Shown in pieces: positions 4,668-27,607 of a DNA stretch of 34,403 bases; positions within the stretch are counted from its first letter, which is position 1; every line of letters starts with the position of its first letter. The notes beneath the pieces are model-generated. The model did no database searches. It was given only the letters and a program-made list of their open reading frames with translations, and was not told where the DNA came from. A program made the translations under genes and the position numbers. This DNA comes from Actinomycetes bacterium (lineage in GTDB: Bacteria > Actinomycetota > Actinomycetes > Streptosporangiales > Streptosporangiaceae). The DNA is taken from NCBI GenBank assembly GCA_021792405.1, contig JAJYUU010000047.1, forward strand, positions 1-34,403, in the 5' to 3' direction.

Positions 4668-5939
4668 TCAGCTTGGCACGGCTGCGCGCTTAACGGGCTG
4701 GCGCCAGGGCGGCTGCCCGGCGTAGCCGCGAGCGACCTGGGTGACGAACTGGTAGACCGCGTCCTCGTCCGGCGAGAGCGGGCCGGGCACGGCGTGCTCG
4801 GAACCCAGGCCGCGCTGGACGGACTCGCAGGCACCCCAGTCCTGCCGGTTGGTGAGATCCCAGAACTCGACTGCGTAGCCGGGATCGAAACCGGGCTTGC
4901 TCAGCGCTTCCGGCGCAAATGCCCAGGTGCACTCGATCAGCGTCCGGTCGGCGGCCAGCGGAGTGAGCCGGTGCGTCATGACGTAGTCGGGGTGCAGGCT
5001 GAGCAGCACGTTCGGGAAGATGTTCACGTAGATGACGGTGCGCAGGCCAGTCTCGTCCAGCCCGCGCAACGGCAGCCCGAGACTGGTGCCGTCCAGCGAC
5101 ATCGTGTCCATGCCCGCCCGCAGGTCCATCCATCCGCCGACCCACGGCCCGCTCGGCCGGTAGTTCGACCCGCTACTGGGCGGGGAGACCTTGCACAGCT
5201 CCGGATGGATCATCGGGCAGTGGTAGCACTCGTGGTAGTTCTCGGTGAGGATCTTCCAGTTCGCGGCCGCGTCGTAGGAGTGTCGGCCGGCTATCACGAG
5301 CCGTTCCGGTTCGTAGGGCGCGACCAGCTCATCCAGCTCGGCCAGCGCGAGATCCATGGGGTTCGCCTCGCCCGAGCCGTCCACGAAGATCAGCCCGTGC
5401 CACTGCGTGACGGGCAGTTCCACCAGGCCCCACTTCGACTCGTCGAAACCGGGCGCGCCCTTGAAGCCCTTCGCAGTCTTCAGTCCGCCGTCGAGCTCGA
5501 AGGCCCAGGAGTGATACGGGCAGACGATCGACGGACGCTGCGCTGACGCGCCGCACGGCAGCAACTCATGGCCCCGGTGGCGGCAGGTGTTGGCAAACGC
5601 GTGCAGGACGCCGCCATTGTCGCGGCTCAGCAGCACGCTGCCCTGGCCGACAGGTACCGCTTGCTGGTCACCGGGGTTAGCAAGCTCGGCCGCAAACCCG
5701 GCGCAGGTCCAGCCGCCGTCGAAGAAATGCTTCTGCTCCCAGGCGAATACCGCCGGATCGACGTAGGCGGCTCTTGACAGCATGCGGCTCTCGCCGAACG
5801 GGCGCAGCGACTCGGCCAGGCCACCGGGGTCGATCGGGGCAACCGGGGCAACCGGGGCAACCGGGACAACCGAGTCGTTAGGATCGGCCGGATCGACTGC
5901 AGCGGGCGGCCCCGGGGCGTCTTCAAGCTGACTGACCAT
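4668..5939 (-). CDS. Rieske non-heme iron oxygenase, choline/betaine monooxygenase-like
   Basis: 423 residues from ATG 5939. The [2Fe-2S] Rieske site is C119-x-H121 and C140-x2-H143 (CRH, then CPYH). The mononuclear iron site is ENYHECYHCPMIHPEL (233-248), with H240 and H245 as ligands and a downstream Asp in the NRQDWGACE region expected as third. The ECYHC-x3-H pattern is the one seen in GbcA/CntA/choline-monooxygenase-type alpha subunits, which oxidise quaternary or tertiary amines using a separate reductase; none is encoded nearby. The N-terminus holds a VAP repeat. An alternative in-frame ATG at 6125 overlaps the methyltransferase stop as TGATG and would add 62 residues. The substrate is not known. 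Confidence 0.85.
   Translation of the reverse strand: MVSQLEDAPGPPAAVDPADPNDSVVPVAPVAPVAPIDPGGLAESLRPFGESRMLSRAAYVDPAVFAWEQKHFFDGGWTCAGFAAELANPGDQQAVPVGQGSVLLSRDNGGVLHAFANTCRHRGHELLPCGASAQRPSIVCPYHSWAFELDGGLKTAKGFKGAPGFDESKWGLVELPVTQWHGLIFVDGSGEANPMDLALAELDELVAPYEPERLVIAGRHSYDAAANWKILTENYHECYHCPMIHPELCKVSPPSSGSNYRPSGPWVGGWMDLRAGMDTMSLDGTSLGLPLRGLDETGLRTVIYVNIFPNVLLSLHPDYVMTHRLTPLAADRTLIECTWAFAPEALSKPGFDPGYAVEFWDLTNRQDWGACESVQRGLGSEHAVPGPLSPDEDAVYQFVTQVARGYAGQPPWRQPVKRAAVPS
5835..5870 (-). repeat. 9-bp tandem repeat in the Rieske gene (Val-Ala-Pro)
   Basis: Three perfect copies of CGGGGCAAC (5835-5861) and one copy with a single change (5862-5870). On the coding strand they give Val-Ala-Pro three times and then Val-Val-Pro, a flexible linker before the conserved domain. 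Confidence 0.9.
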
Positions 5940-6023
5940 ACAGTCAATCTTAGGTCGACTACCGGAGACGTGTCTAGCCGTGACTAGCTCTACATCAGCG
6001 GAGACAACGCCTCCCTCGACGCC

Positions 6024-6059
6024 GTCCCGCTCGTCCCGCTCGTCCTGCTCGCCCTGCTC
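6024..6059 (-). repeat. degenerate 9-bp tandem repeat upstream of the Rieske gene
   Basis: Four 9-bp units of the form GTCCCGCTC (6024-6032, 6033-6041, then variants to 6059). In the minus-strand frame that continues into the Rieske gene they would encode acidic Asp-Glu-Arg/Gln triplets. The repeat lies in the 62-codon possible extension between 6125 and 5939. Confidence 0.8.
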
Positions 6060-6124
6060 GGCCATTGCCAGGGTCACCGCCCGGTGCTGCGGGTCGGCGA
6101 GACTTTCGATGTGCCAGGAGTGCA

Positions 6125-6913
6125 TCAGCCGGCGGATCGGCCGAATGCGCCGCGCCTTACTCCGAGGGCGCCGTCGGCAAGCGCTCCCGCGAAGTTGAGC
6201 ATGCGGGTGAACCCGTCCTCGATGAGCATCGCCAGGTTGGGTCCGGGACGCGGGTGGCCGGTGAAGGCGGTGTCGAACCATGAGATGGCCCAAGCCGTCT
6301 CGTCGACCCATTCGACGGGCTCGAAGCCCGCGCCGAGGATGGCGTCGCGCAGGGCGTCGGAGGTGGCCAGGTGGCTGTCGCTTCCGTCCATCGACCATGG
6401 CATCGGCCAGGACAGCTCCGTGCCGGAGGTGCGGCAGACCTCCCACACGGCGAAGCGGGCTCCAGGGGCGAGCCGCCGTGCGATCTCGGCGTACCACTCC
6501 CGCTTCGCCTCGATGTTCATCTGGACGTGCATGGTGAACCCGGCGTCGAACGACTGGTCAGGCATGAGGTCGGCGATATCGCCGTGGACGAACCGGACGC
6601 GGTCCGACAGCCCGCAACGATCGGTCAGCTCGGTGGCGGCCTGCACGTAGGCCTCGGTGATGTCCACACCCGTCACCTGGCAACCGGAGGCAGCGGCGAC
6701 CTGGCGGGCCGGACCTCCGAGACCTGACCCGACATCGAGGACGGTGTCCGACGGCGACAGGACCATGGTGTCGAGCAGGCGCTCGACGGCCTGTGAACCT
6801 CCGGCGTGGTAGTGGTCGAGGTACTGCAGCGCTTCGAGGGTGGATCTTTCGCTCGCGCCCTGCGGTACGAGGCGGTCGATGGTGGCGATCAGGTCCCGCT
6901 CGGCGTAGGTCAT
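6125..6913 (-). CDS. SAM-dependent methyltransferase (class I, type 11)
   Basis: 262 residues from ATG 6913, with AAGGAG four bases upstream. The SAM-binding motif I is VLDVGSGLGGPARQ (58-71), with the acidic residue D84 at the end of strand 2 (TGVDIT) and a motif-II region reading VRFVHGDIADL. The N-terminal LDHYHAGGSQA segment is typical of sarcosine/dimethylglycine-type N-methyltransferases and related small-molecule methyltransferases. It lies 71 bp after the exporter stop and its own TGA overlaps an ATG in the Rieske frame (TGATG), so exporter, methyltransferase and oxygenase probably form one operon. With a betaine-type oxygenase next door a methylated amine substrate is tempting, but that is inference. 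Confidence 0.8.
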   Translation of the reverse strand: MTYAERDLIATIDRLVPQGASERSTLEALQYLDHYHAGGSQAVERLLDTMVLSPSDTVLDVGSGLGGPARQVAAASGCQVTGVDITEAYVQAATELTDRCGLSDRVRFVHGDIADLMPDQSFDAGFTMHVQMNIEAKREWYAEIARRLAPGARFAVWEVCRTSGTELSWPMPWSMDGSDSHLATSDALRDAILGAGFEPVEWVDETAWAISWFDTAFTGHPRPGPNLAMLIEDGFTRMLNFAGALADGALGVRRGAFGRSAG

Positions 6914-11999: not shown

Positions 12000-12431
12000 T
12001 CAGGCTGCGGAATCAGGGCTGTGCGGTGCGGTCATCAGCTCGAAGAGGCCTTCACCGCTCGTGGCAGGGCGGAGCGGGAGTGGCCGGACCCGGTCGGGTG
12101 TCACAGCTGCGATCCCGCCCGCGAGGAGCAGTTCGGTGAGCTGGCCGGGCAAGGCGGCTAGTAGCAGCGCGGCGAGTGCGGCCGATGTGAAAGTGTCGAC
12201 TTCGCGGACCAGGATGACCGAGGGGCGAGTGTCTCCGGAGGCGAACAGGAGCTGCACGAAGTCGTGATCGCAGGAGACGATTGTCGGGTCCGCGTTGCGA
12301 GCCCGGTCCAAGATCACCTGGTCGTCAGTGCTGGTGAGGCCGATCTCGGTTACGTGCACCGCGTCGTGCCCGGCTGCCTTCAGGTGCGGGCAGAGCCGGT
12401 AGGAGATGTTCTCATCCGGCAGGAATCTCAT
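12000..12431 (-). CDS. DUF5615 PIN-like toxin
   Basis: 143 residues from ATG 12431. The start MRFLPDENIS gives D6, then GHDAVHVTEIGLTSTDDQVI supplies D36/D37, and IVSCDHDFVQLL supplies D55 and D57. This set of acidic residues matches the PIN-like nuclease core of DUF5615 (Mut7-C-related) toxins, which are presumed ribonucleases. The usual length is 100-120 residues; the extra C-terminus is Pro/Arg-rich and of unclear role. The ATG overlaps the antitoxin stop as ATGA, the standard antitoxin-first layout. No gene is squeezed between it and the GlxA regulator, which it faces convergently with a 62-bp gap. Confidence 0.8.
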   Translation of the reverse strand: MRFLPDENISYRLCPHLKAAGHDAVHVTEIGLTSTDDQVILDRARNADPTIVSCDHDFVQLLFASGDTRPSVILVREVDTFTSAALAALLLAALPGQLTELLLAGGIAAVTPDRVRPLPLRPATSGEGLFELMTAPHSPDSAA

Positions 12432-12661: not shown

Positions 12662-12906
12662 GCCGTCCGATGTACAGCCGGATCGCCGGAATGCCGTGAG
12701 GTCGGCAGCGGGACGCCGCGTCAGGTTTCCGTGGTGCGCCAGGCACCTGGCTCCGGCGTTCTGCCGCTACCTGAACTGGTACCCGGATGTGTCATGAATC
12801 CGTTCGGGGACGTGAAGTGTCATCCCTGCCTGCCCGGCCTGGGTGACAAACGATCTTGAAGTGGCCACCCAGCGACCTGGGCGGGCCGCTGACCTGCGGC
12901 TCTGGG

Positions 12907-13283
12907 TGGAGGTGGCGGGAATCGAACCCGCGTCCTTCAGTACATCACTAGGGCTTCTCCGGGTGCAGCCTGCTGTGTGTTTCTCAGCCCCGGCAGTCAC
13001 GCAGGCAAGCTGCCGACGGGCTCAGTCGCTGTTGGCTGTCCCGCCTGGTCCCGCGACCGGACCGGGCGGTAGATCCTCCTTGCTGATGCCAGGCACCGGG
13101 CCGGAGGAACTCCCGGGCTGACAGCCTCATGCTGCTCTAGCGGTTATTAGGCCGCGAGAGCGAGGCTAGTGCGCGTTGAGTTGGCACTTATTCGTTTGCG
13201 GACACAGTGTTAACGAGGTTATGTCCGCCGTCCTCGACCCGCTTCCCCTAGATCAACTACCGAAGTCGAAGCCAGTCACCCCC
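12907..13283 (-). ncRNA. ssrA: transfer-messenger RNA (tmRNA)
   Basis: The 5' end GGGGGTG (13283-13277) pairs with CACCTCC (12914-12908) with one G-U pair to form the acceptor stem. The discriminator is at 12907 and no CCA is encoded. The 3' part has a normal T-arm (CGGGTTCGATTCCCG), and the 5' part reads GACTGGCTTCGACTTCGG. The tag frame runs from 13185 to 13150 and encodes ANSTRTSLALAA followed by two stops (TAATAA, 13149-13144). The AATAAGT just before the GCC resume codon also fits actinobacterial tmRNAs. It rescues stalled ribosomes with SmpB, which is encoded at 15863-16327 on the same strand. Confidence 0.95.
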
Positions 13284-13815: not shown

Positions 13816-15858
13816 TCAACCGCCAGGCTGGATGTCCTGAAGGAAGCGGCCAGCCAGCGCCGCAGCTGAGCTATCTGCTGACCTGCTCAACTCGACTACG
13901 GCGAAGGCCAGCCCGTGCCGGTAGCCGACGAACCAGTTGAGCTGCAGCCGCCCGGAACCATACGGAGCGGTGCCGGCCTGAGCGTAGACGTTTCCGCCGA
14001 TATCAGCGACCGCGTTCGAGCCGGTACTGGCGGCATCCTTCATCAGCGACCGCAGTTCGCCTAGTACCTGCGGGCTTGCCGAGATCCGCGCGATCGAACT
14101 CGGATCGCTCAGGCCGGCCACCAGCGACGGCGCGTGCCAGCGGCCGGATTCGACCACCGCGGCCGCCAGCGCCATGCCGAGCGGGCTCACCCGCACACCG
14201 CCGTCGCCGATCACGTCCTCGGCCAGCACGCCTGAGTTCACCGGGTGACCGAGCTGCCCGGCAAAGAACCTGCTGCCGGGCAGCTGCCAGCCGCCGATCC
14301 CGAATTCCTGGCTCGTCCGGATCAGCTCGCTGGCAGTGAGCGACTGGGCTAGGCCGCCAGCGAACGCGGTCGAACATGCATGCGCGAAGTCGCTGCGGAA
14401 CGAAGGGTTGCTACCCAGAGCGACTGGAGGATTATTACGGAAAGTCCAGCCATCAACTGAATTGCGCCAAGGGCAGAACACGGGATCATTGAGTGACAAC
14501 CGCTCTGCCGACAAGATCGCAGCAGTCGAGACGATGGTGAAGGCCTGTCCTGGCTGGTACCCGCCCGTCAGCGGGCTGAGGCCCGGCATGCCGGCGGCGG
14601 TCTGGCTGCCCACTGCGAGGATCTTGCCGGTTCCGGCCTGGACGGCGACGATCGCCGCGGAGCCGGGCTGGCCGGCCAGCGCCTGGTCGGCGGCGACCTG
14701 CACCCCTGCGTCCAGAGTGGTGTGCACGGGCTTGCCGGGTGATCCCGGCCAGGTCTTCAGCGCCGCCACGGGAAGCCCCGATCGCTGGAGAATTACCTGC
14801 GTTTCCGGCGTGCCAGTGAGCTGCTGCTGGAATGTCTGCTGGAGTCCGGACAGGCCGACTGTCGTACCGGGCCGGTACTGTTCGCCATTGACACGCAGTA
14901 CGCTGGCCGTCTCTGTGCCGACCGTGCCCACCACGTCAGGCGCGATGCTGTCGAACAGCCGCTCCCGGCGCCGCCGGATCAGCAGGCCCGGGATCGCATT
15001 CAGCTTGGTCTGCAGCCTGGCGTACTCAGCCGGAGACAGCGTCAGCAACGGCAGGAACGCGGCCGACAGGCCCTGGTCCATCTGGCCCTCGATCTGGTCT
15101 TCGGGAATCTTCGTGACGTCAGCAAGGTCCACGGCGGTCCGCTGAGCATTCGTCAGGTGATCGGGAATGACGCCGACCTGGTAGACCGTGGACCACACAG
15201 CCAGCGGCTGACCCGCGGAGTCGAGCAACTGAGAGCGCGGCGCCCAGTTGCTGACCACGGCAAGCTGCTCGCCGTTAGTCATGCCTGGCACGATCACCGC
15301 AGGGCTCCATCGGATCCGCCAGCCATGGCTGCCGTCGGCCAGGCCGAAGCTGTTGTCATAAGACCACGTAAGGCCGCTCCCGCTGAGGTCAATGGAGACG
15401 CCGAAGGTCGCCCGCGCAGTCGCGCCGTGCTGGCTGACGCCCTGCATGATCAGCTCAACGTCAGCAGCGTCGAGCCGCTGGTAGGCGGCTGCGAGCTGGG
15501 CGGCAACTGCCTTCGGGTCACCATTCGTCAGTTCCGCTGCCTTCAGGTATTGCCGGGACTCCCAGGCGAGCAGGAACTGCGTGACAATCGGCTCGGCGGA
15601 CGGCACGCCAGGGCGGGCTAGCCCGACACCCACAACGGCAGCCACTACCGCAGCCGCGGTCACGCGGATGAGCGTCGCTTTCCGGCGCCTGATCAGCCCG
15701 CCCGCTCCGGACTGGCTGTCCGAGTCTCCGGACACCGGCTTGCTGCCGGAATCCCTCGGCTTGCCAGGCCGGGAACTGCGGTTTTGCGCGGTGCGCGGCG
15801 CACGATGCGCTCCGCCGCGCGCACTGCGGCTGCGGGGCGGTGCGGCATCCGGTGTCAC
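13816..15858 (-). CDS. MecA-like penicillin-binding protein lacking catalytic motifs
   Basis: 680 residues from GTG 15858, which follows the smpB stop by 4 nt and has GGAG eight bases upstream; an ATG at 15924 would overlap smpB by 62 bp. After a Ser/Arg-rich cytoplasmic tail comes one membrane anchor (VTAAAVVAAVVGVGLA). An NTF2-like MecA_N-type domain (FLLAWESRQYLKAAEL), a dimerisation domain and a transpeptidase-like domain follow. The three active-site motifs of transpeptidases are replaced: S-x-x-K is QAFT (PGQAFT, 14536-14553), SxN is STA (HACSTAF) and KTG is QAG (13972-13980). The fold seems intact and the frame is open, so a non-enzymatic scaffold or regulator of wall synthesis is more likely than decay. 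Confidence 0.85.
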   Translation of the reverse strand: MTPDAAPPRSRSARGGAHRAPRTAQNRSSRPGKPRDSGSKPVSGDSDSQSGAGGLIRRRKATLIRVTAAAVVAAVVGVGLARPGVPSAEPIVTQFLLAWESRQYLKAAELTNGDPKAVAAQLAAAYQRLDAADVELIMQGVSQHGATARATFGVSIDLSGSGLTWSYDNSFGLADGSHGWRIRWSPAVIVPGMTNGEQLAVVSNWAPRSQLLDSAGQPLAVWSTVYQVGVIPDHLTNAQRTAVDLADVTKIPEDQIEGQMDQGLSAAFLPLLTLSPAEYARLQTKLNAIPGLLIRRRRERLFDSIAPDVVGTVGTETASVLRVNGEQYRPGTTVGLSGLQQTFQQQLTGTPETQVILQRSGLPVAALKTWPGSPGKPVHTTLDAGVQVAADQALAGQPGSAAIVAVQAGTGKILAVGSQTAAGMPGLSPLTGGYQPGQAFTIVSTAAILSAERLSLNDPVFCPWRNSVDGWTFRNNPPVALGSNPSFRSDFAHACSTAFAGGLAQSLTASELIRTSQEFGIGGWQLPGSRFFAGQLGHPVNSGVLAEDVIGDGGVRVSPLGMALAAAVVESGRWHAPSLVAGLSDPSSIARISASPQVLGELRSLMKDAASTGSNAVADIGGNVYAQAGTAPYGSGRLQLNWFVGYRHGLAFAVVELSRSADSSAAALAGRFLQDIQPGG

Positions 15859-15862
15859 GCTA

Positions 15863-16327
15863 CTATCTCCGCCGTCGCAGCTCACGCTCGACTTCCCTGG
15901 CTGCGTCCCGCTTGGCGAGCTCATGTCGCTTGTCGTATGTTCGCTTGCCGCGCGCCAGCCCTAGCTCGATCTTGGCTTTCCCGTCTTTGAAGTACAAGGA
16001 CAGGGGCACGAGTGTCAGCCCTCGTTCCCTGATCGAGCTAGCTAGCCTGTCGATCTCCTTGCGGTGCAAGAGCAGCTTACGGCTGCGCCGCGGCTCGTGA
16101 TTCGTCCAGGTCCCCTGGGTGTACTCAGGTATGTGGACGCCATGCAGCCAGGCTTCACTGTCCGTTATCAGACCATAGCCGTCGGTAAGGGTTGCGCGGC
16201 CCGCCCGCAACGACTTCACCTCCGTACCGGTCAGAACCAGCCCGGCCTCCACCACATCCTCGATGGTGTACTCATGGCGGGCCCGCCGGTTACTGGCAAT
16301 GAGCTTCTTGCCTTGCTCCGCAGCCAC
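15863..16327 (-). CDS. smpB: tmRNA-binding protein SmpB
   Basis: 154 residues from GTG 16327, with GAGGAG five bases upstream. The conserved signatures are [40 protein letters not shown], the [20 protein letters not shown] region, [20 protein letters not shown] and a basic C-terminal tail [20 protein letters not shown]. SmpB binds the tRNA-like part of tmRNA and its tail enters the empty mRNA channel of stalled ribosomes. Downstream on the same strand lie the PBP-like gene and then ssrA; upstream, by 34 bp, is ftsX. Confidence 0.97.
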
Positions 16328-16361: not shown

Positions 16362-17282
16362 TCAGACCCGCAGGTAGCGCCTGAGCGTGAGGAACGACGT
16401 GCTGCCGCAGATGAGCAGGCCGGTGATCATCGCCACGATGATCACCTCGACCAGGTCGGCGGTACTGAGCTGCACCCCAAGCGGGAAGATGCTCTGCAGG
16501 CTACTGAGCAGGAGTGCCTTGGCCCCGATCAGCAGGCCGGTCGCTACCAGCCAGCCGATCAGTCCGGCGATCATGCCCTCGGCCAGAAACGGCAACTGGA
16601 CATAGAAGTTCGAGGCGCCCACGAGCCGCATGATCGACGTCTCCCGGCGGCGGTTGAATGCCGACAGCCGGATCGTGTTGGCCACCAGCAAGATGGCCGC
16701 GACTAGCAGAAAGATCGCTATCACGACAACCGCGTTCCGCGCGCCGTCAAGCAACTTGTAGAGCTGATCCAGCAGCGTGGTGTCGTCAACAACATCCGCC
16801 ACCCCTGGAGCACCGTTCATAACCGAAGTGACCGCGGCGGCATCTGCCTCGGTGTTCTTCAGCCTGATCTCGAACGAACTCGGGATCTGGCTGGCCGAGT
16901 ACTTGACGAGGTACTTGACGAGGGTCTGGTTGTCGGCGAACTCCTGCCGGAACTGGGCCACGGCCTGAGACTGCGACACGTACTGGATGCTGAGGATGTC
17001 GTGTGTCTGCAGCAGCTCGTTCTTGATCGCCGTACGTTCGGCCGGAGTGACCGCGCCGTTCTTGGCGCAGGTGCCGCCGAGCGCGGAACTGGTGCACAGG
17101 TAAACCGAGAGCTGAACCCTGCTCTGCCACCACGACCTGGTGTTGTCGACCTGCTTCACGAACAGCAAGCCGGTGCCCAGCAAGGAGAGGCTGATCGCCA
17201 CGACCACGATCAGGGCAACCGTCATCGTCAGATTCCGGCGAAGGCCAATCCACACCTCGTGGAAGACAAACTGGGCACGCAC
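16362..17282 (-). CDS. ftsX: cell division protein FtsX
   Basis: 306 residues from GTG 17282, with AGAGGA upstream. The layout is FtsX-like: cytoplasmic N-terminus, first helix (about 20-42, VALIVVVAISLSLLGTGLLF), a large extracytoplasmic domain with one Cys pair (CTSSALGGTCAKNG), then three helices near the C-terminus. The cytoplasmic link contains FNRRRETSIMRLVGASNFYV, the segment that contacts FtsE. With FtsE it forms the ATP-driven complex that activates cell-wall hydrolases at division. It follows ftsE by 34 bp in the same operon. Confidence 0.95.
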   Translation of the reverse strand: MRAQFVFHEVWIGLRRNLTMTVALIVVVAISLSLLGTGLLFVKQVDNTRSWWQSRVQLSVYLCTSSALGGTCAKNGAVTPAERTAIKNELLQTHDILSIQYVSQSQAVAQFRQEFADNQTLVKYLVKYSASQIPSSFEIRLKNTEADAAAVTSVMNGAPGVADVVDDTTLLDQLYKLLDGARNAVVVIAIFLLVAAILLVANTIRLSAFNRRRETSIMRLVGASNFYVQLPFLAEGMIAGLIGWLVATGLLIGAKALLLSSLQSIFPLGVQLSTADLVEVIIVAMITGLLICGSTSFLTLRRYLRV

Positions 17283-17316: not shown

Positions 17317-18006
17317 TCAGTAGGCCTGCCCGTAGACCCCGCGCGACTGGTCGCGCACGACCTTGCCGTACTCGAGCTCGATCACCCGCTTGCGCATGGA
17401 ATCGACGATCGCGGCGTCGTGCGTGGCCATCACCACGGTGGTCCCGGTCCGGTTGATCCGGTCCAGCACCTTCATGATTCCGATGGATGTTGCCGGGTCG
17501 ATATTCCCGGTTGGCTCATCGGCCAGCAAGATCATCGGCCGGTTGACGAACGCACGGGCCATGGCGACGCGCTGCTGCTCACCGCCGGACAGCTCGTCCG
17601 GCATCCGGTCTCGCTTGCCTTCCAGCCCCACCAGGTCGATGACCTCCGGCACCACCTTCCTGATGAACCGGCGCGGCTTGCCAATGACCTCCAGCGCGAA
17701 GGCGATGTTCTGATACACGTTCTTGTTGGGCAGCAACCTGAAATCCTGGAACACGCAGCCGATGCGTCGCCGCAGGTGCGGCACTTTCCAGTTGGTCAGC
17801 CGGGCAAGGTCCTTGCCCGCGACGTGGATCCGGCCCGACGTCGGCCGCTCTTCCTTCAGGACCAGTCGCAGGAACGTCGACTTGCCTGAGCCCGACGGAC
17901 CGACCAGGAAGACGAACTCGCCCTTCTCCACATCCAGGCTCACGCTCTCCAGAGCCGGCCGGCCTTGATTCGCGTACGTCTTGGTGACGTTGTCGAAGTG
18001 GATCAC
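17317..18006 (-). CDS. ftsE: cell division ATP-binding protein FtsE
   Basis: 229 residues from GTG 18006. ABC ATPase motifs are complete: Walker [10 protein letters not shown], the Q-loop in [11 protein letters not shown], signature [14 protein letters not shown], Walker [13 protein letters not shown] and the H-loop ATHDAAIVD. The first residues [11 protein letters not shown] and the [17 protein letters not shown] stretch are typical of FtsE rather than other ABC proteins. It powers FtsX signalling to periplasmic or wall hydrolases. It heads ftsE-ftsX-smpB; prfB lies further upstream on the same strand, separated by a small plus-strand gene. Confidence 0.96.
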
Positions 18007-18403: not shown

Positions 18404-19507
18404 CTACAGTCCCTGGGTGCGCAGCCAGCGGATCTCGGCTTCGATGAAGTCGTCGATCTCGCCGTCCATCACGGCGGTCGTGTTGCCGGTTTCGTAACCC
18501 GTCCGCACATCCTTGATGTTCTGGTACGGGTGCAGCACATAGTTCCGGATCTGGGTGCCCCAGCTACGGCCGCCGTCGCCCCGGAGCTCGTTCAGCTTGG
18601 CTGCCTGCTCCTCACGCTTGCGCTCCAGCAGCTTGGACTGCAGGACGGCCATCGCGGTGGCCTTGTTCTGGATCTGGCTGCGCTCGTTCTGGCAGGACAC
18701 CACGAGCCCGGTCGGCAGGTGGGTAATGCGGACCGCTGAGTCGGTGGTGTTCACGCCCTGGCCGCCGGGACCGCTCGACCGGAACACGTCGATGCGCATC
18801 TCGTCTTCCGGTATGTCGATGTGATCGACCTGCTGAACCACCGGGAGCACGTCCACCATGGCAAACGAGGTCTGGCGGCGGCCCTGGTTGTCGTACTTGG
18901 AGATGCGCACCATCCGGTGCGTCCCGTGCTCGCCACGCAGGGTGCCATAGGCATATGGCGCCTTGATCGCAAACGTGGTCGACTTGATCCCGGCCTCTTC
19001 CGCGTACGAGGTGTCGTAAACCTCAGTGGGATAGCCGTGGCGCTCGGCCCAGCGCAGGTAGATCCGCCGCAGTCCCTCAGTCCAGTCCGCCGCATCTGCC
19101 CCCCCGGCTCCGGCGTTGATACTGATCAGAGCCTCGCGGGCGTCGTACTCGCCATTCAGCAGCGTCCTGATCTCGAGCTGGTCCACCTCCTTGCGCAGCG
19201 CGGCGAGCTCCAACAGCGCCTCCTGCCTGGTGGGCTCGTCATTCTCGCTCTCGGCGAGCTCGAACATCACGGCGGTGTCATCCAGCCTGCGGTGCAGCGC
19301 CGCCAGCCGGGCTAGCTCGCCGTCGAGGTAGGAAAGCCGCCTGGTGACTTCCTGGGCCTTCTCCTGGTCCTCCCACAAGCTTGGGTCGGCCGAGCGGTCG
19401 CGAAGGCTGTCAGCCTCGCCGCGCATGGCAGCGGGATCGAGGACGGCCTCTACCCTGGCGAGCGTCGCCATCAGCTCCGAGATCTCGCTCGTGGGGTCGG
19501 TTGGCAT
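18404..19507 (-). CDS. prfB: peptide chain release factor 2, with SKY in place of SPF
   Basis: 367 residues from ATG 19507. The peptidyl-tRNA hydrolysis loop [20 protein letters not shown] and the downstream [19 protein letters not shown] are intact. RF2 rather than RF1 is indicated by length, by [14 protein letters not shown] and by [15 protein letters not shown]. The tripeptide that reads UGA/UAA, SPF in the RF2 proteins I know (including mycobacterial ones), is SKY here (18894-18902): Ser is kept while Pro and Phe are changed. No programmed +1 frameshift is present; the frame is continuous. Most genes in this window end in TGA, so RF2 must work efficiently. Confidence 0.96.
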
Positions 19508-24588: not shown

Positions 24589-24666
24589 CTACTCTTCTGC
24601 CTTCACATCGTCCGTGATCACGGTGCTCGCTGTCACAGTGCTCGCTGTCACAGTGCTCGCTGTCAT
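24589..24666 (-). CDS. possible 25-residue coupled small ORF
   Basis: ATG 24666-24664 overlaps the kynA stop as ATGA and opens 25 codons ending in TAG at 24591-24589, just before the glutamate dehydrogenase ribosome site. The product is MTASTV with the TASTV unit three times, then an acidic tail DDVKAEE. Third positions are not GC-biased and the repeat is a DNA tandem repeat, so it may be noise, a leader peptide, or a spacer that couples the two genes. Confidence 0.2.
   Translation of the reverse strand: MTASTVTASTVTASTVITDDVKAEE
24619..24663. repeat. 15-bp tandem repeat, three copies
   Basis: Unit CACAGTGCTCGCTGT occurs at 24634-24648 and 24649-24663, with a one-base variant at 24619-24633, directly downstream of the kynA stop. 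Confidence 0.9.
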
Positions 24667-25568
24667 AGGGAATCCCGCAATTCCCAGAGCAGCGGGTAGT
24701 AGCGCAGCGGCACCCGCCGGTGCAGGTAGGGCGCGCCGGTCGAGCCGCCGGTCCCGGACTTCGTACCGATCTGCCGTTCGACCATTTGGACGTGCCTGGC
24801 GCGCCACAGGCCGGCCAGCTCGTCATAGGTCAGCAGGTCCTCGGCCAGTTCCCAGAGGTCGTCGTAGCGCGGCCGATCCCTGGCCACGCTTACTAGCGCG
24901 GCGAGGATGTGTTGGGCATCACCGACGGCGAGGCCCCTGGACGCCAGCAGGTCGACGTAGGCGTCCCAGAGTGAGGGCTCCGCCAGCCGCGCGGTCAGCC
25001 GCTCGCGCTCGTCCTCCGTCAGTGACCTGAACCGGGCCACGAACCCCGGGTCCTTGGCGCCGGAGAGGAACTCCAGCTCCCGGAACTGCACCGACTGGAA
25101 CCCGCTGGCCGGGGCTAGCGCCGCCCTGAAGTCCAGGAAGTCCTGCGGAGTCATCGTCTCCAGCACGTCGATCTGGCTGACCAGCAGTCGCTGGATCACG
25201 TGCACCCGGTGCAGCAGGTGGCGAGCCAGCCAGGTCGGCCTGGCCAGGCCAGCGCTCATCGCCGCCGGCTGCCCAGCCGGCCCGCGGTCCGCGGTGGCCG
25301 GATCGCCGTCCGCCAGCATCGCATCGCGGACGGCGGTGAGCTCGTGCAGCAGCTGCTTGAACCACAGCTCGTAGGCCTGGTGCACGACGATGAACAACAG
25401 CTCGTCATGGACCGGCGGGACGACCAAGGCGACCTGCTGAGCCAGCAACTGCGGCACCCGCAGGTAGCTCCCGTAAGTCAGTAGGCCGCCTTCCTCGCCG
25501 AAGCTGCGGCCCGCACCCGCTTGGGTCACTCTGCGCTCGTCTTGGCCATCGGGACCTGCCAGCGTCAT
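24663..25568 (-). CDS. kynA: tryptophan 2,3-dioxygenase
   Basis: 301 residues from ATG 25568, whose ATGA overlaps the stop of the acetoacetyl-CoA synthetase gene. The frame is open further upstream, but the family starts shortly before LLTYGSYLRVPQLLAQQ. Diagnostic segments are HDELLFIVVHQAYELWFKQL, FRELEFLSG, and RHVQMVERQIGTK followed by GTGGSTGAPYL. His in RARHVQMV is the expected heme ligand, and the Arg and Gly/Thr-rich loop bind tryptophan. It opens the indole ring to N-formylkynurenine. No kynurenine formamidase or kynureninase is nearby, so the rest of the pathway must lie elsewhere. Confidence 0.95.
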   Translation of the reverse strand: MTLAGPDGQDERRVTQAGAGRSFGEEGGLLTYGSYLRVPQLLAQQVALVVPPVHDELLFIVVHQAYELWFKQLLHELTAVRDAMLADGDPATADRGPAGQPAAMSAGLARPTWLARHLLHRVHVIQRLLVSQIDVLETMTPQDFLDFRAALAPASGFQSVQFRELEFLSGAKDPGFVARFRSLTEDERERLTARLAEPSLWDAYVDLLASRGLAVGDAQHILAALVSVARDRPRYDDLWELAEDLLTYDELAGLWRARHVQMVERQIGTKSGTGGSTGAPYLHRRVPLRYYPLLWELRDSL

Positions 25569-27607
25569 GCAGGGCTCCCCGGCGGGGCGAAGAAGCTGAG
25601 CACTTCCGGGTTGGCCAGCGCATCCGGGTCTGCCGCCTCGGCCACCTTCGTGCCGAGCAGAATCTTCCTGACCGGCACCTCGAGCTTCTTGCCGGACAGC
25701 GTCCGCGGTATGCCGGGGACCTCGATGATCTCGTCGGGAACGTGGCGCGGTGACAGCTCGGTGCGCAGCAGCCACCTGATCTTGGCTGTCAGCCCCTCGG
25801 TCACGGAGTAGCCATCGGCCGGGGCCACGTAGAGGATCAGCCGACCGTCGCGGCCTAGCTGACCGGTATCGATGACGAGACTGTCAGCGACTTCGGGCAG
25901 TCGCTCGACGACCCGGTAGAACTCACTGGTGCCCATTCGCACGCCGCCACGGTTCAAGGTGGCGTCAGACCGGCCGTAAATCACGCAGCCGCCGTCGGGC
26001 TGGATCATGATCCAGTCGCCGTGCCGCCAGACGCCCGGATAGTCAGCGAAGTAGCTGGCCCGGTAGCGCTGGCCGGCCGGGTCGTTCCAGAATCCGATCG
26101 GCATCGACGGCATCGGCGCAGTGAGGACGAGTTCCCCGACCTCGCCGATGACCGGCCGCCCGGCCGGGTCGAACGACTGCACCCGCGCGCCCAGGCACGG
26201 CCCGGAGATGATGCCAGCGCGCACCGGAAGGATCGGGGCCGGCCCGACAAAGCCCGTGCACAGGTCGGTACCGCCCGAGAAGGAGCCGAGGATCAGCCCG
26301 GACGAGCCCGTTCCCAGCTCGTCGTACACCCAGCGGAAACCTTCCGGTGGCAGCGGCGAGCCGGTCGAGCCGACCCCCTTCAGGGCCGACAGGTCATGTT
26401 CGGCGGCCGGGTGAATACCCGCCTTCATGCAGGCCAGCAGGTACGGCGCGCCGGTACCGGCGTAGGTCACGCCGGTCTGTGCCGCCAGGCGCCACAGCGC
26501 CCCGGTGTCCGGGTGCGCGGCGCTGCCGTCGTACAGGACAATGGTGGCGCCGACGAGCAGGCCGCCGATGAGGTAGTTCCACATCATCCAGCCGGTCGTG
26601 GTGTACCAGAAGAACACATCCGCACTGGTCAGGTCCTGGTGCAGGGCCAGTGCCTTGAGGTGCTCGAGCACGATCCCGCCGTGGCTGTGCACGATCGGCT
26701 TGGGCAAGCCAGTGGTGCCCGAGGAGTACAGCACCCACAGCGGGTGCGCGAACGGCACCTCGGCGAACTCCAGCCGCGTCCCGTCCGCGTCGGCAGGGCC
26801 GAAGGTCTCCCAGTTCAGTACGGGAACGCCCGCCTCCAGGCCAGCCGCGCCGCCATCGGCCAGATAGTCGACGACGATGAGGGCTTCCAGGCCAGGCAAT
26901 TCGGCCGCGATCGCGGTGAGCTCCGCTCGCCGGTCGTAGCGCTTGCCGCCGTAGGCGTACCCGGTCACGCCGACCAGGACCTTCGGAGCGACCTGGGCGA
27001 ATCGGTCGACCACACTATGCGCACCGAAATCTGGCGAGCACGATGTCCAGATCGCGCCGAGGCTGGCCGCGGCCAGCATCGCGGTCAGCGCCTCGGGAGA
27101 GTTCGGCAGGTAGGCAGCGACCCGGTCGCCAAGTCCGACGCCGAGCCGCTGCAAGCCGGCTCGCACCTGCGCCACCCGGGCGGCGAGTTCACCGTAACTG
27201 AGCTGACCGTCGCGGCCCGCTTCGCTGCGGTAGACAACGGCGGTGCGGCCCGGATCGACGCGGGCACGCCGCAGCGCGTTCCTGGCGTAGTTCAGCGTGC
27301 CGCCCGCGAACCACTGCGCGCCGGGCATCTGCCCGGTCAGCACCGGCCCGGCGCCCCGGCTGCCAAGCACCCCGAAGAAGTCCCAGATCGATGACCAGAA
27401 CGCGGCAGGCTCGCTGACCGACCACTGCCAGAGCTCACGGTAGCTGGGGATGCCGGAACTGGCGTCGTCCGGCACCGCCGGTCCGCCGTTGCGAGCGAGC
27501 CAGCGGATGTAACGGACTATCTCGGTTCGCGCTGCCGACTCGGGGGATGGCGTCCACAGCGTGTCGCCGTAGTCACGCCCGGCCGCCAGCGTCAGGTCGT
27601 CGGTCAC
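25565..27607 (-). CDS. acetoacetyl-CoA synthetase
   Basis: 680 residues from GTG 27607. It is an ANL-family adenylating enzyme with LYSSGTTGLPKPIVHSHGG (P-loop), GSFSGGTDLCTGF, GDWIMIQPDGG, GRSDATLNRGGVRMGTSEFY and the C-terminal catalytic-Lys motif IPRTLSGKKLEVPVRK. The long N-terminus with YRELWQWSV and FFGVLGS, and the WFAGGTLNYARNAL segment, distinguish acetoacetate-CoA ligases from acetyl-CoA synthetases. It activates acetoacetate for entry into central metabolism or polyester synthesis. A TATA-like patch (27657-27664) with TTGCAC upstream could be its promoter, though spacing is poor. It overlaps kynA by 4 nt, so the two are co-translated. Confidence 0.92.
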   Translation of the reverse strand: MTDDLTLAAGRDYGDTLWTPSPESAARTEIVRYIRWLARNGGPAVPDDASSGIPSYRELWQWSVSEPAAFWSSIWDFFGVLGSRGAGPVLTGQMPGAQWFAGGTLNYARNALRRARVDPGRTAVVYRSEAGRDGQLSYGELAARVAQVRAGLQRLGVGLGDRVAAYLPNSPEALTAMLAAASLGAIWTSCSPDFGAHSVVDRFAQVAPKVLVGVTGYAYGGKRYDRRAELTAIAAELPGLEALIVVDYLADGGAAGLEAGVPVLNWETFGPADADGTRLEFAEVPFAHPLWVLYSSGTTGLPKPIVHSHGGIVLEHLKALALHQDLTSADVFFWYTTTGWMMWNYLIGGLLVGATIVLYDGSAAHPDTGALWRLAAQTGVTYAGTGAPYLLACMKAGIHPAAEHDLSALKGVGSTGSPLPPEGFRWVYDELGTGSSGLILGSFSGGTDLCTGFVGPAPILPVRAGIISGPCLGARVQSFDPAGRPVIGEVGELVLTAPMPSMPIGFWNDPAGQRYRASYFADYPGVWRHGDWIMIQPDGGCVIYGRSDATLNRGGVRMGTSEFYRVVERLPEVADSLVIDTGQLGRDGRLILYVAPADGYSVTEGLTAKIRWLLRTELSPRHVPDEIIEVPGIPRTLSGKKLEVPVRKILLGTKVAEAADPDALANPEVLSFFAPPGSPA

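What the first reader, a model, noticed from the sequence alone, without database searches (positions are those of the whole stretch)
13816..15858. Pseudo-PBP: all three transpeptidase motifs replaced in an intact frame
SxxK is QAFT, SxN is STA and KTG is QAG, yet a 680-codon frame, membrane anchor and MecA_N-like domain are kept, with a good ribosome site inside the smpB end. It cannot acylate by the known mechanism, so a structural or regulatory role is implied, placed beside ftsEX, which controls wall hydrolysis.
Basis: partly seen in the sequence, partly recalled or inferred. Interest (0 to 1): 0.75.

Follow-up and report, generated by a model that had tools for sequence, protein, structure and literature searches.

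The report
Dead penicillin-binding protein kept order-wide
This is a cell-wall protein built like the enzymes that penicillin blocks but without their catalytic residues, and a large group of actinobacteria has kept it intact, which suggests that it does a so far unknown non-enzymatic job in building or dividing the cell wall.

Summary
The gene (13816-15858, minus strand, 680 codons) is real and intact. It is no local oddity. Of these, 0 of 90 keep the SxxK or KTG lysine, and they form one side of one branch. Active versions sit at the same smpB locus in three other families, so the loss is ancient. Active, unlinked paralogues persist in many of the same genomes. The dead copy is under purifying selection (dN/dS 0.155-0.508 in 11 pairs). 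In 21 matched genomes its constraint has moved from the transpeptidase domain to MecA_N. Usual order: ftsE-ftsX-smpB-gene-ssrA. Best reading: a non-catalytic envelope scaffold or regulator working through its NTF2-like MecA_N domain and a retained transpeptidase shell. The pseudoenzyme status is close to shown by sequence; the function, and any FtsEX link, is inferred. My literature searches found no description.

The parts
13816..15858 (-). pseudo-transpeptidase gene, 680 codons, GTG start
   Evidence: orthologues
15867..15870 (-). GGAG ribosome-site-like tetramer, 8 nt before the GTG, overlapping the smpB end
   Evidence: read from sequence
15616..15675 (-). single N-terminal hydrophobic stretch (residues about 62-81), probable membrane anchor
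   Evidence: read; no membrane predictor was run
15271..15600 (-). MecA_N (NTF2-like) domain, residues 87-196
   Evidence: E 5.1e-12; more conserved than in active paralogues
14791..15243 (-). PBP_dimer (pedestal) domain, residues 206-356
   Evidence: E 3.3e-18
13897..14655 (-). degenerate transpeptidase domain, residues 402-654
   Evidence: E 4.7e-12
14536..14547 (-). SxxK position, residues 438-441, QAFT (STFK or SSFK in the active relatives)
   Evidence: weak PBP5 alignment
14371..14379 (-). SxN position, residues 494-496, ACS (SCN in active relatives)
13972..13980 (-). KTG position, residues 627-629, QAG
   Evidence: weak PBP5 alignments
14473..14475 (-). Cys462, one of two invariant cysteines (90 of 90 dead, 11 of 11 active), possible disulfide with Cys495
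   Evidence: the disulfide is inference
14374..14376 (-). Cys495, middle residue of the SxN triad, the other invariant cysteine
15863..16327 (-). smpB
   Evidence: E 1.5e-60
16362..17282 (-). ftsX
17317..18006 (-). ftsE (ABC ATPase beside ftsX)
18404..19507 (-). prfB-like release factor (PCRF and RF-1 domains)
12905..13283 (-). ssrA (tmRNA), 3' neighbour

Best explanation
The gene encodes a pseudoenzyme: a class B PBP of PBP2a/PBP5-like architecture that lost its transpeptidase chemistry once, in an ancestor of the families f1 and f2 of its order, and has been kept since. Shown by sequence: the three-domain protein with a hydrophobic N-terminal stretch, the loss of the catalytic residues, the intact frames, the purifying selection, the fixed place 3' of smpB, and the shift of constraint from the transpeptidase domain to MecA_N. 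Inferred: the protein is made with FtsEX and SmpB, sits outside the membrane, and acts without catalysis. Its MecA_N domain and the junction with the pedestal would bind peptidoglycan or a partner, the emptied transpeptidase domain would serve as a docking surface, and together they would position or regulate wall-synthesis or wall-cleavage enzymes, most likely at division.
For: Motif tally: Lys of SxxK 0 of 90, Lys of KTG 0 of 90, Ser of SxxK 7 of 90, Asn of SxN 4 of 90, against 11 of 11 for each in active relatives. The 90 rows are one side of one branch, SH-aLRT 100, with the three motif stretches left out of the tree (quick method). smpB is 5' on the same strand in 90 of 90, and tmRNA is 3' within 2.5 kb in 82 of 90. 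Active versions at the smpB locus: L102, L103, L104, L116, L134. dN/dS is 0.155-0.508 in 11 dead pairs. In 21 genomes holding both copies, mean identity is MecA_N 0.476 (dead) against 0.378 (active) and transpeptidase 0.428 against 0.513; TP minus MecA_N is larger for the active copy in 207 of 210 genome pairs; the 90-against-11 comparison points the same way. Of 15 columns whose constraint was lost, 7 are the motif residues; 6 of 8 columns of gained constraint lie at residues 95-201, the MecA_N domain and its junction with the pedestal. A MecA_N search of the window's genome found only this protein, so the dead copy is kept there without an active sister of this architecture being found. Precedents: catalytically inactive PBP 2B has a structural role in B. 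subtilis (PMC5656894, abstract); an NTF2 domain of another wall enzyme binds peptidoglycan (PMC8038945, abstract).
Against: No expression, localisation, binding or deletion data. No usable structure model: two-row AlphaFold gave mean pLDDT 29.3. Gene order is shared with the active version, so it does not point to the new role. PBP_dimer is less conserved in the dead copy than in the active one (0.384 against 0.470), which does not favour a pedestal-centred scaffold. Genome pairs are not independent. In one genome of the window's genus (G001) I found only the active paralogue: a gap in that draft assembly or a loss. Some members keep the SxxK serine (7 of 90) or S and N of SxN (2 of 90), so losses beyond the lysines were probably stepwise.
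Confidence: 0.6

Rival explanations
1. Non-covalent ligand sensor: the emptied pocket still binds D-Ala-D-Ala stems or lipid II reversibly, and the protein reports wall state to FtsEX or another system.
For: The transpeptidase domain is retained, with 36 of 253 columns at 95% or more in 21 dead members, and an invariant Cys pair.
Against: The replaced pocket positions carry different residues in different lineages (KTG Lys became Q in 46, V in 31, I in 11, A or L in 2 of 90), unlike a conserved binding site; Gln552, invariant in the active set, is kept in 40%.
Confidence: 0.2
2. Slowly decaying gene, retained by its place between smpB and ssrA and not by a function of its own.
For: Its place is constant; dN/dS of the transpeptidase part alone reaches 0.618 and 0.655 in 2 of 11 pairs.
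Against: No frame is broken among the 90 (one runs off its contig); dN/dS is below 0.52 in 11 of 11 pairs; MecA_N is more conserved than in the active copy; new constrained columns were gained.
Confidence: 0.05
3. Still an enzyme, with another nucleophile or another reaction in the same fold.
For: Small hydroxyl residues (T or S) replace the SxxK lysine in 74 of 90; the Cys of SxN is invariant.
Against: None of the replaced motif positions is invariant as a new nucleophile or base; G replaces the SxxK lysine in 15 of 90. The Cys is equally invariant in the 11 active relatives, which suggests a structural role.
Confidence: 0.07
4. Partner or allosteric subunit of the active, unlinked paralogue.
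For: An active paralogue clade exists in f1/f2 (20 of 20 fetched loci plus L111, L114, L115 have intact motifs), so an enzyme/pseudoenzyme pair is possible.
Against: The window genome and the genome matching T. curvata (G140) each show one MecA_N match only, at the dead gene.
Confidence: 0.08

Closest known systems
Low-affinity class B PBPs: E. faecium PBP5, S. aureus PBP2a (MecA)
   Same: Domain order MecA_N, PBP_dimer, transpeptidase (Pfam); best solved-structure matches by sequence (8f3x E 6.2e-21; PBP2a chains from E 3.1e-15)
   Different: All three catalytic motifs are gone. The significant stretch covers residues 85-420 only; the transpeptidase part aligns without significance. The window protein scores far below the cut-offs of all 11 NCBIfam families listed
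Active smpB-linked and unlinked actinobacterial relatives (L102-L104, L116, L134; L034, L037, L117; L111, L114, L115, L178-L197)
   Same: Homologous along the chain; five of them at the same smpB locus
   Different: STFK or close variant, SCN and KTG (once KSG) intact in those fetched
B. subtilis PBP 2B S309A (engineered inactive PBP) and PBP 3
   Same: Shows that a class B PBP can have a structural division role independent of catalysis (abstract of PMC5656894)
   Different: A laboratory mutant of an active enzyme; here the inactive state is natural and ancestral
C. jejuni Pgp2 NTF2 domain
   Same: NTF2-like domain attached to a wall enzyme; binds peptidoglycan (abstract of PMC8038945)
   Different: An LD-carboxypeptidase; only the fold class of the accessory domain is shared, by family name; no structural comparison was made

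Membership tests
Class B PBP, PBP2a/PBP5-like architecture (by descent) | MecA_N + PBP_dimer + Transpeptidase domains in this order | tested here: met
   all above Pfam cut-offs
Class B PBP, PBP2a/PBP5-like architecture (by descent) | N-terminal membrane anchor or lipid anchor | tested here: inconclusive
   hydrophobic stretch at residues 62-81 read; no predictor run
Functional PBP (acyl-serine DD-transpeptidase) | SxxK | tested here: not met
   QAFT; Lys 0 of 90 orthologues
Functional PBP (acyl-serine DD-transpeptidase) | SxN | tested here: not met
   ACS; Asn 4 of 90, Ser and Asn together 2 of 90
Functional PBP (acyl-serine DD-transpeptidase) | KTG | tested here: not met
   QAG; Lys 0 of 90
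Functional PBP (acyl-serine DD-transpeptidase) | covalent binding of beta-lactams | not testable with these tools
   needs fluorescent penicillin labelling
Pseudogene | broken frame in the window or in relatives | tested here: not met
   intact in window and in the orthologues (frames of 622 codons or more; L020 runs off its contig). Stops that one search lists for some rows lie upstream of these frames where I checked (L012, L023, L027)
Pseudogene | dN/dS near 1 | tested here: not met
   0.155 for window against L007; 0.155-0.508 in 11 pairs
FtsEX pathway component | physical or genetic interaction with FtsEX | not testable with these tools
   gene order only

The most novel reading that the evidence does not exclude
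A naturally dead penicillin-binding protein, fixed in the ancestor of most of an actinobacterial order and re-tuned through its MecA_N domain, is a dedicated non-enzymatic regulator of wall assembly or of FtsEX-controlled wall cleavage: a conserved enzyme/pseudoenzyme pair among PBPs.
Probability: 0.3. Interest if true: 0.82.

Novelty: new variant of a known kind. Interest (0 to 1): 0.68.

Why it matters
Non-catalytic roles of class B PBPs have, as far as I recall, been argued mainly from engineered mutants (one example seen here: PMC5656894, abstract). Here nature has run that experiment: a PBP kept across 50 sampled genera after losing its chemistry, with active sister copies for comparison. 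It makes the question 'what does a PBP do besides transpeptidation?' directly testable by one deletion and one binding assay. It also warns that a protein recognised by its transpeptidase domain need not be a beta-lactam target.

Tried and rejected
Recent decay: rejected, see motif tally, tree and dN/dS. Structure route: AlphaFold on the window protein plus L007 (2 rows) gave mean pLDDT 29.3, pTM 0.18; not used, no fold search run.

Own errors, superseded: one search read many frames on the wrong strand. One search gave spurious 'PBP' matches inside smpB because some query frames ran upstream into smpB; redone with trimmed queries (1 of 60 class-level smpB regions has the gene, L134; 8 of the 60 end less than 2 kb after smpB). 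The tree left out the wrong columns for KTG (QAGT occurs twice) and is superseded. One search took wrong frames for 10 of 20 paralogue loci and is superseded.

Rows dropped: L051 (gene cut after 164 codons by its contig end) and 11 duplicate loci before the tallies; L180 (second paralogue of one genome) and L111 (its genome shows no dead copy in my set). The pairs were hand-picked.

A limit: the Pfam Transpeptidase search of the window's own genome listed six other proteins but not the window gene itself, so it can miss degenerate domains; another dead copy elsewhere in the genome is not excluded.

Literature: searches (20 of 67 papers shown; 12 of 16 shown) gave, in the listings seen, no paper describing a natural, conserved inactive PBP or this locus; subscription journals and preprints are not held. 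Seen: outlines with abstracts of PMC3072092, PMC3035289, PMC3035300, PMC5656894, PMC8038945; passages of PMC6705760 and PMC8262863 (this gene is not named in the passages seen).

Full report
What is there. On the minus strand, 15858 to 13816, lies an intact 680-codon frame starting with GTG, 4 nt after the smpB stop, with GGAG 8 nt before the start. Pfam recognises MecA_N (87-196), PBP_dimer (206-356) and Transpeptidase (402-654), each above its cut-off. Upstream are smpB, ftsX, ftsE and prfB. Downstream, 532 nt away, is a tmRNA gene. So the gene sits between the two partners of trans-translation, smpB and ssrA, behind ftsEX.

The motifs. Aligned with relatives, SxxK is QAFT (438-441), SxN is ACS (494-496) and KTG is QAG (627-629). 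Pairwise alignments with solved E. faecium PBP5 put QAFT opposite STFK in one of the two shown and QAG opposite KTG in both, but these second stretches are not significant on their own (E 1.5 and 18); the significant stretch ends at residue 420, before the motifs.

Distribution. I anchored on SmpB in the order: 150 of 150 genomes have SmpB. I fetched 73 of these smpB regions, at least one for each genus of that sample besides the window's own; in 73 of 73 the PBP frame follows smpB on the same strand (L051 is cut after 164 codons and was not judged). Three of the 73 (family f3) are active. With the orthologues found by protein search, 90 distinct genomes in 50 genera carry the dead version: 88 labelled f1, one f2, and L007, whose contig length equals that of the G004 contig, an f1 genome of the window's genus. 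Of the 37 f1 genomes, a dead copy was located in 36; G001 gave only an active paralogue. The match to SmpB ends 123 to 816 nt (median 149, n 89) before the codon for Phe95 of the dead gene. Tally in the 90: SxxK Lys is T 37, S 37, G 15, Q 1; KTG Lys is Q 46, V 31, I 11, A 1, L 1; SxxK Ser is kept in 7; SxN Asn in 4. All 11 active relatives in that alignment keep every one of these residues. The two cysteines 462 and 495 are invariant in 90 of 90 and 11 of 11.

Which organisms. The contig lengths of G140 (5,639,016) and G107 (4,189,976) equal the genome lengths given in the abstracts for Thermomonospora curvata and Thermobispora bispora (PMC3072092, PMC3035289), and G080 (6.5 Mb, largest piece 5,767,958) fits Nocardiopsis dassonvillei (PMC3035300 abstract). 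So f1 would cover Streptosporangiales in the broad sense; that name is my inference. The dead motifs in those three (SxxK with the residue before it, SxN, KTG): GLTFG/SCA/VVA, GSVFS/GCV/VAG, GSTFG/SCN/QAA.

History. With the motif stretches left out, the 90 rows form one side of one branch, SH-aLRT 100; one change of state is enough (quick tree). Active versions at the smpB locus exist in f3 (L102-L104), f9 (L116) and f37 (L134, followed by ssrA too). In the class sample 1 of 60 other smpB regions has the gene (8 of the 60 end within 2 kb of smpB). Active unlinked paralogues occur in f1 and f2: all 20 loci fetched for this, plus L111, L114 and L115, have intact SxxK, SCN and K[TS]G. They form a clade of 23 (99/98) apart from the dead clade (15 rows sampled, 100/100); how dead clade, paralogues and f3 branch from each other is not resolved (84/59, drawn open). 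Simplest reading: duplication, the smpB-linked copy lost catalysis before f1 and f2 parted, the other kept it.

The window's genome. A Pfam Transpeptidase search listed six other proteins (it did not list the window gene, so it can miss degenerate domains). By my reading all six show an SxxK and KTGT and look like FtsI-, PbpA- and MrdA-like proteins and three bifunctional ones (names by resemblance, not tested). A MecA_N search found one protein, the dead one. In the order sample 150 of 150 genomes have MecA_N; in the genome matching T. curvata the one match is the smpB-linked dead gene.

Selection. dN/dS (Nei-Gojobori, last 560 aligned codons) is 0.155 for window against L007 and 0.155-0.508 over 11 hand-picked dead pairs; two active pairs gave 0.151 and 0.418. 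In the last 290 codons, about the transpeptidase part, 2 of 11 dead pairs reach 0.618 and 0.655. So purifying, somewhat relaxed in that domain.

Shift of constraint. In 21 genomes that hold both copies, mean pairwise identity was: MecA_N 0.476 dead, 0.378 active; PBP_dimer 0.384 and 0.470; transpeptidase 0.428 and 0.513. TP minus MecA_N was larger for the active copy in 207 of 210 genome pairs, which are not independent. Columns at 95% or more: MecA_N 20 dead against 11 active; PBP_dimer 16 against 12; transpeptidase 36 against 54. Fifteen columns lost constraint; seven are S and K of SxxK, S and N of SxN, and K, T, G of KTG. Eight gained it; six lie at residues 95-201. This is what one expects if the pocket fell out of use while the NTF2-like domain took over the function.

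How it may work. Shown: a PBP shell with a hydrophobic N-terminal stretch, dead by sequence, retained and re-constrained. Inferred: co-production with FtsEX and SmpB, extracytoplasmic placement, and a binding role of MecA_N and its junction with the pedestal, to peptidoglycan or to another wall protein. Precedents are the structural role of inactive PBP 2B (PMC5656894 abstract) and peptidoglycan binding by the NTF2 domain of Pgp2 (PMC8038945 abstract). In Corynebacterineae FtsEX works with RipC and SteAB in cell separation (PMC6705760, passages); the passages do not concern this gene. The FtsEX link is therefore open: the position is also shared with the active versions.

Known or new. By descent it is a class B PBP of PBP5/PBP2a type; as an enzyme it fails all three defining motifs, so it should not be filed as a functional PBP. 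I found no paper on it in the listings, in an open-access library only. I rate it a new variant of a known kind, a conserved pseudoenzyme in a family known for enzymes.

Noticed in passing
12905-13283 (-): tmRNA gene with a tag ending in two stops (ANSTRTSLALAA**) lies 3' of the gene; tmRNA follows the dead PBP gene in 82 of 90 orthologous loci, and 5 of the 8 misses have under 1.5 kb of sequence left.
   Followed up: yes
L199 (G000:C267:24000-33500): Two further SmpB-like frames, 54% identical to the window's SmpB, 5,356 bases apart, with an exact 300-base repeat: tandem copy, misassembly or foreign contig in this genome bin.
   Followed up: partly
12000-12431 (-): DUF5615 / PIN-like protein, a possible toxin-antitoxin part, just beyond ssrA.
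   Followed up: no
4668-6497 (-): 609-codon frame in which only residues about 237-437 match large subunits of aromatic-ring or glycine-betaine oxygenases in NCBIfam; the first 230 residues are unexplained.
   Followed up: no
24663-25775 (-): Tryptophan 2,3-dioxygenase-like frame scoring about half of the NCBIfam cut-off, with its best stretch from about residue 185; it overlaps the acetoacetate-CoA ligase frame 25565-27607.
   Followed up: no
L043, L044 (genus g52): A few dead copies keep motif residues (S and N of SxN in 2 of 90, SxxK Ser in 7 of 90), while both lysines are lost in all 90: a trace of the order of losses.
   Followed up: partly
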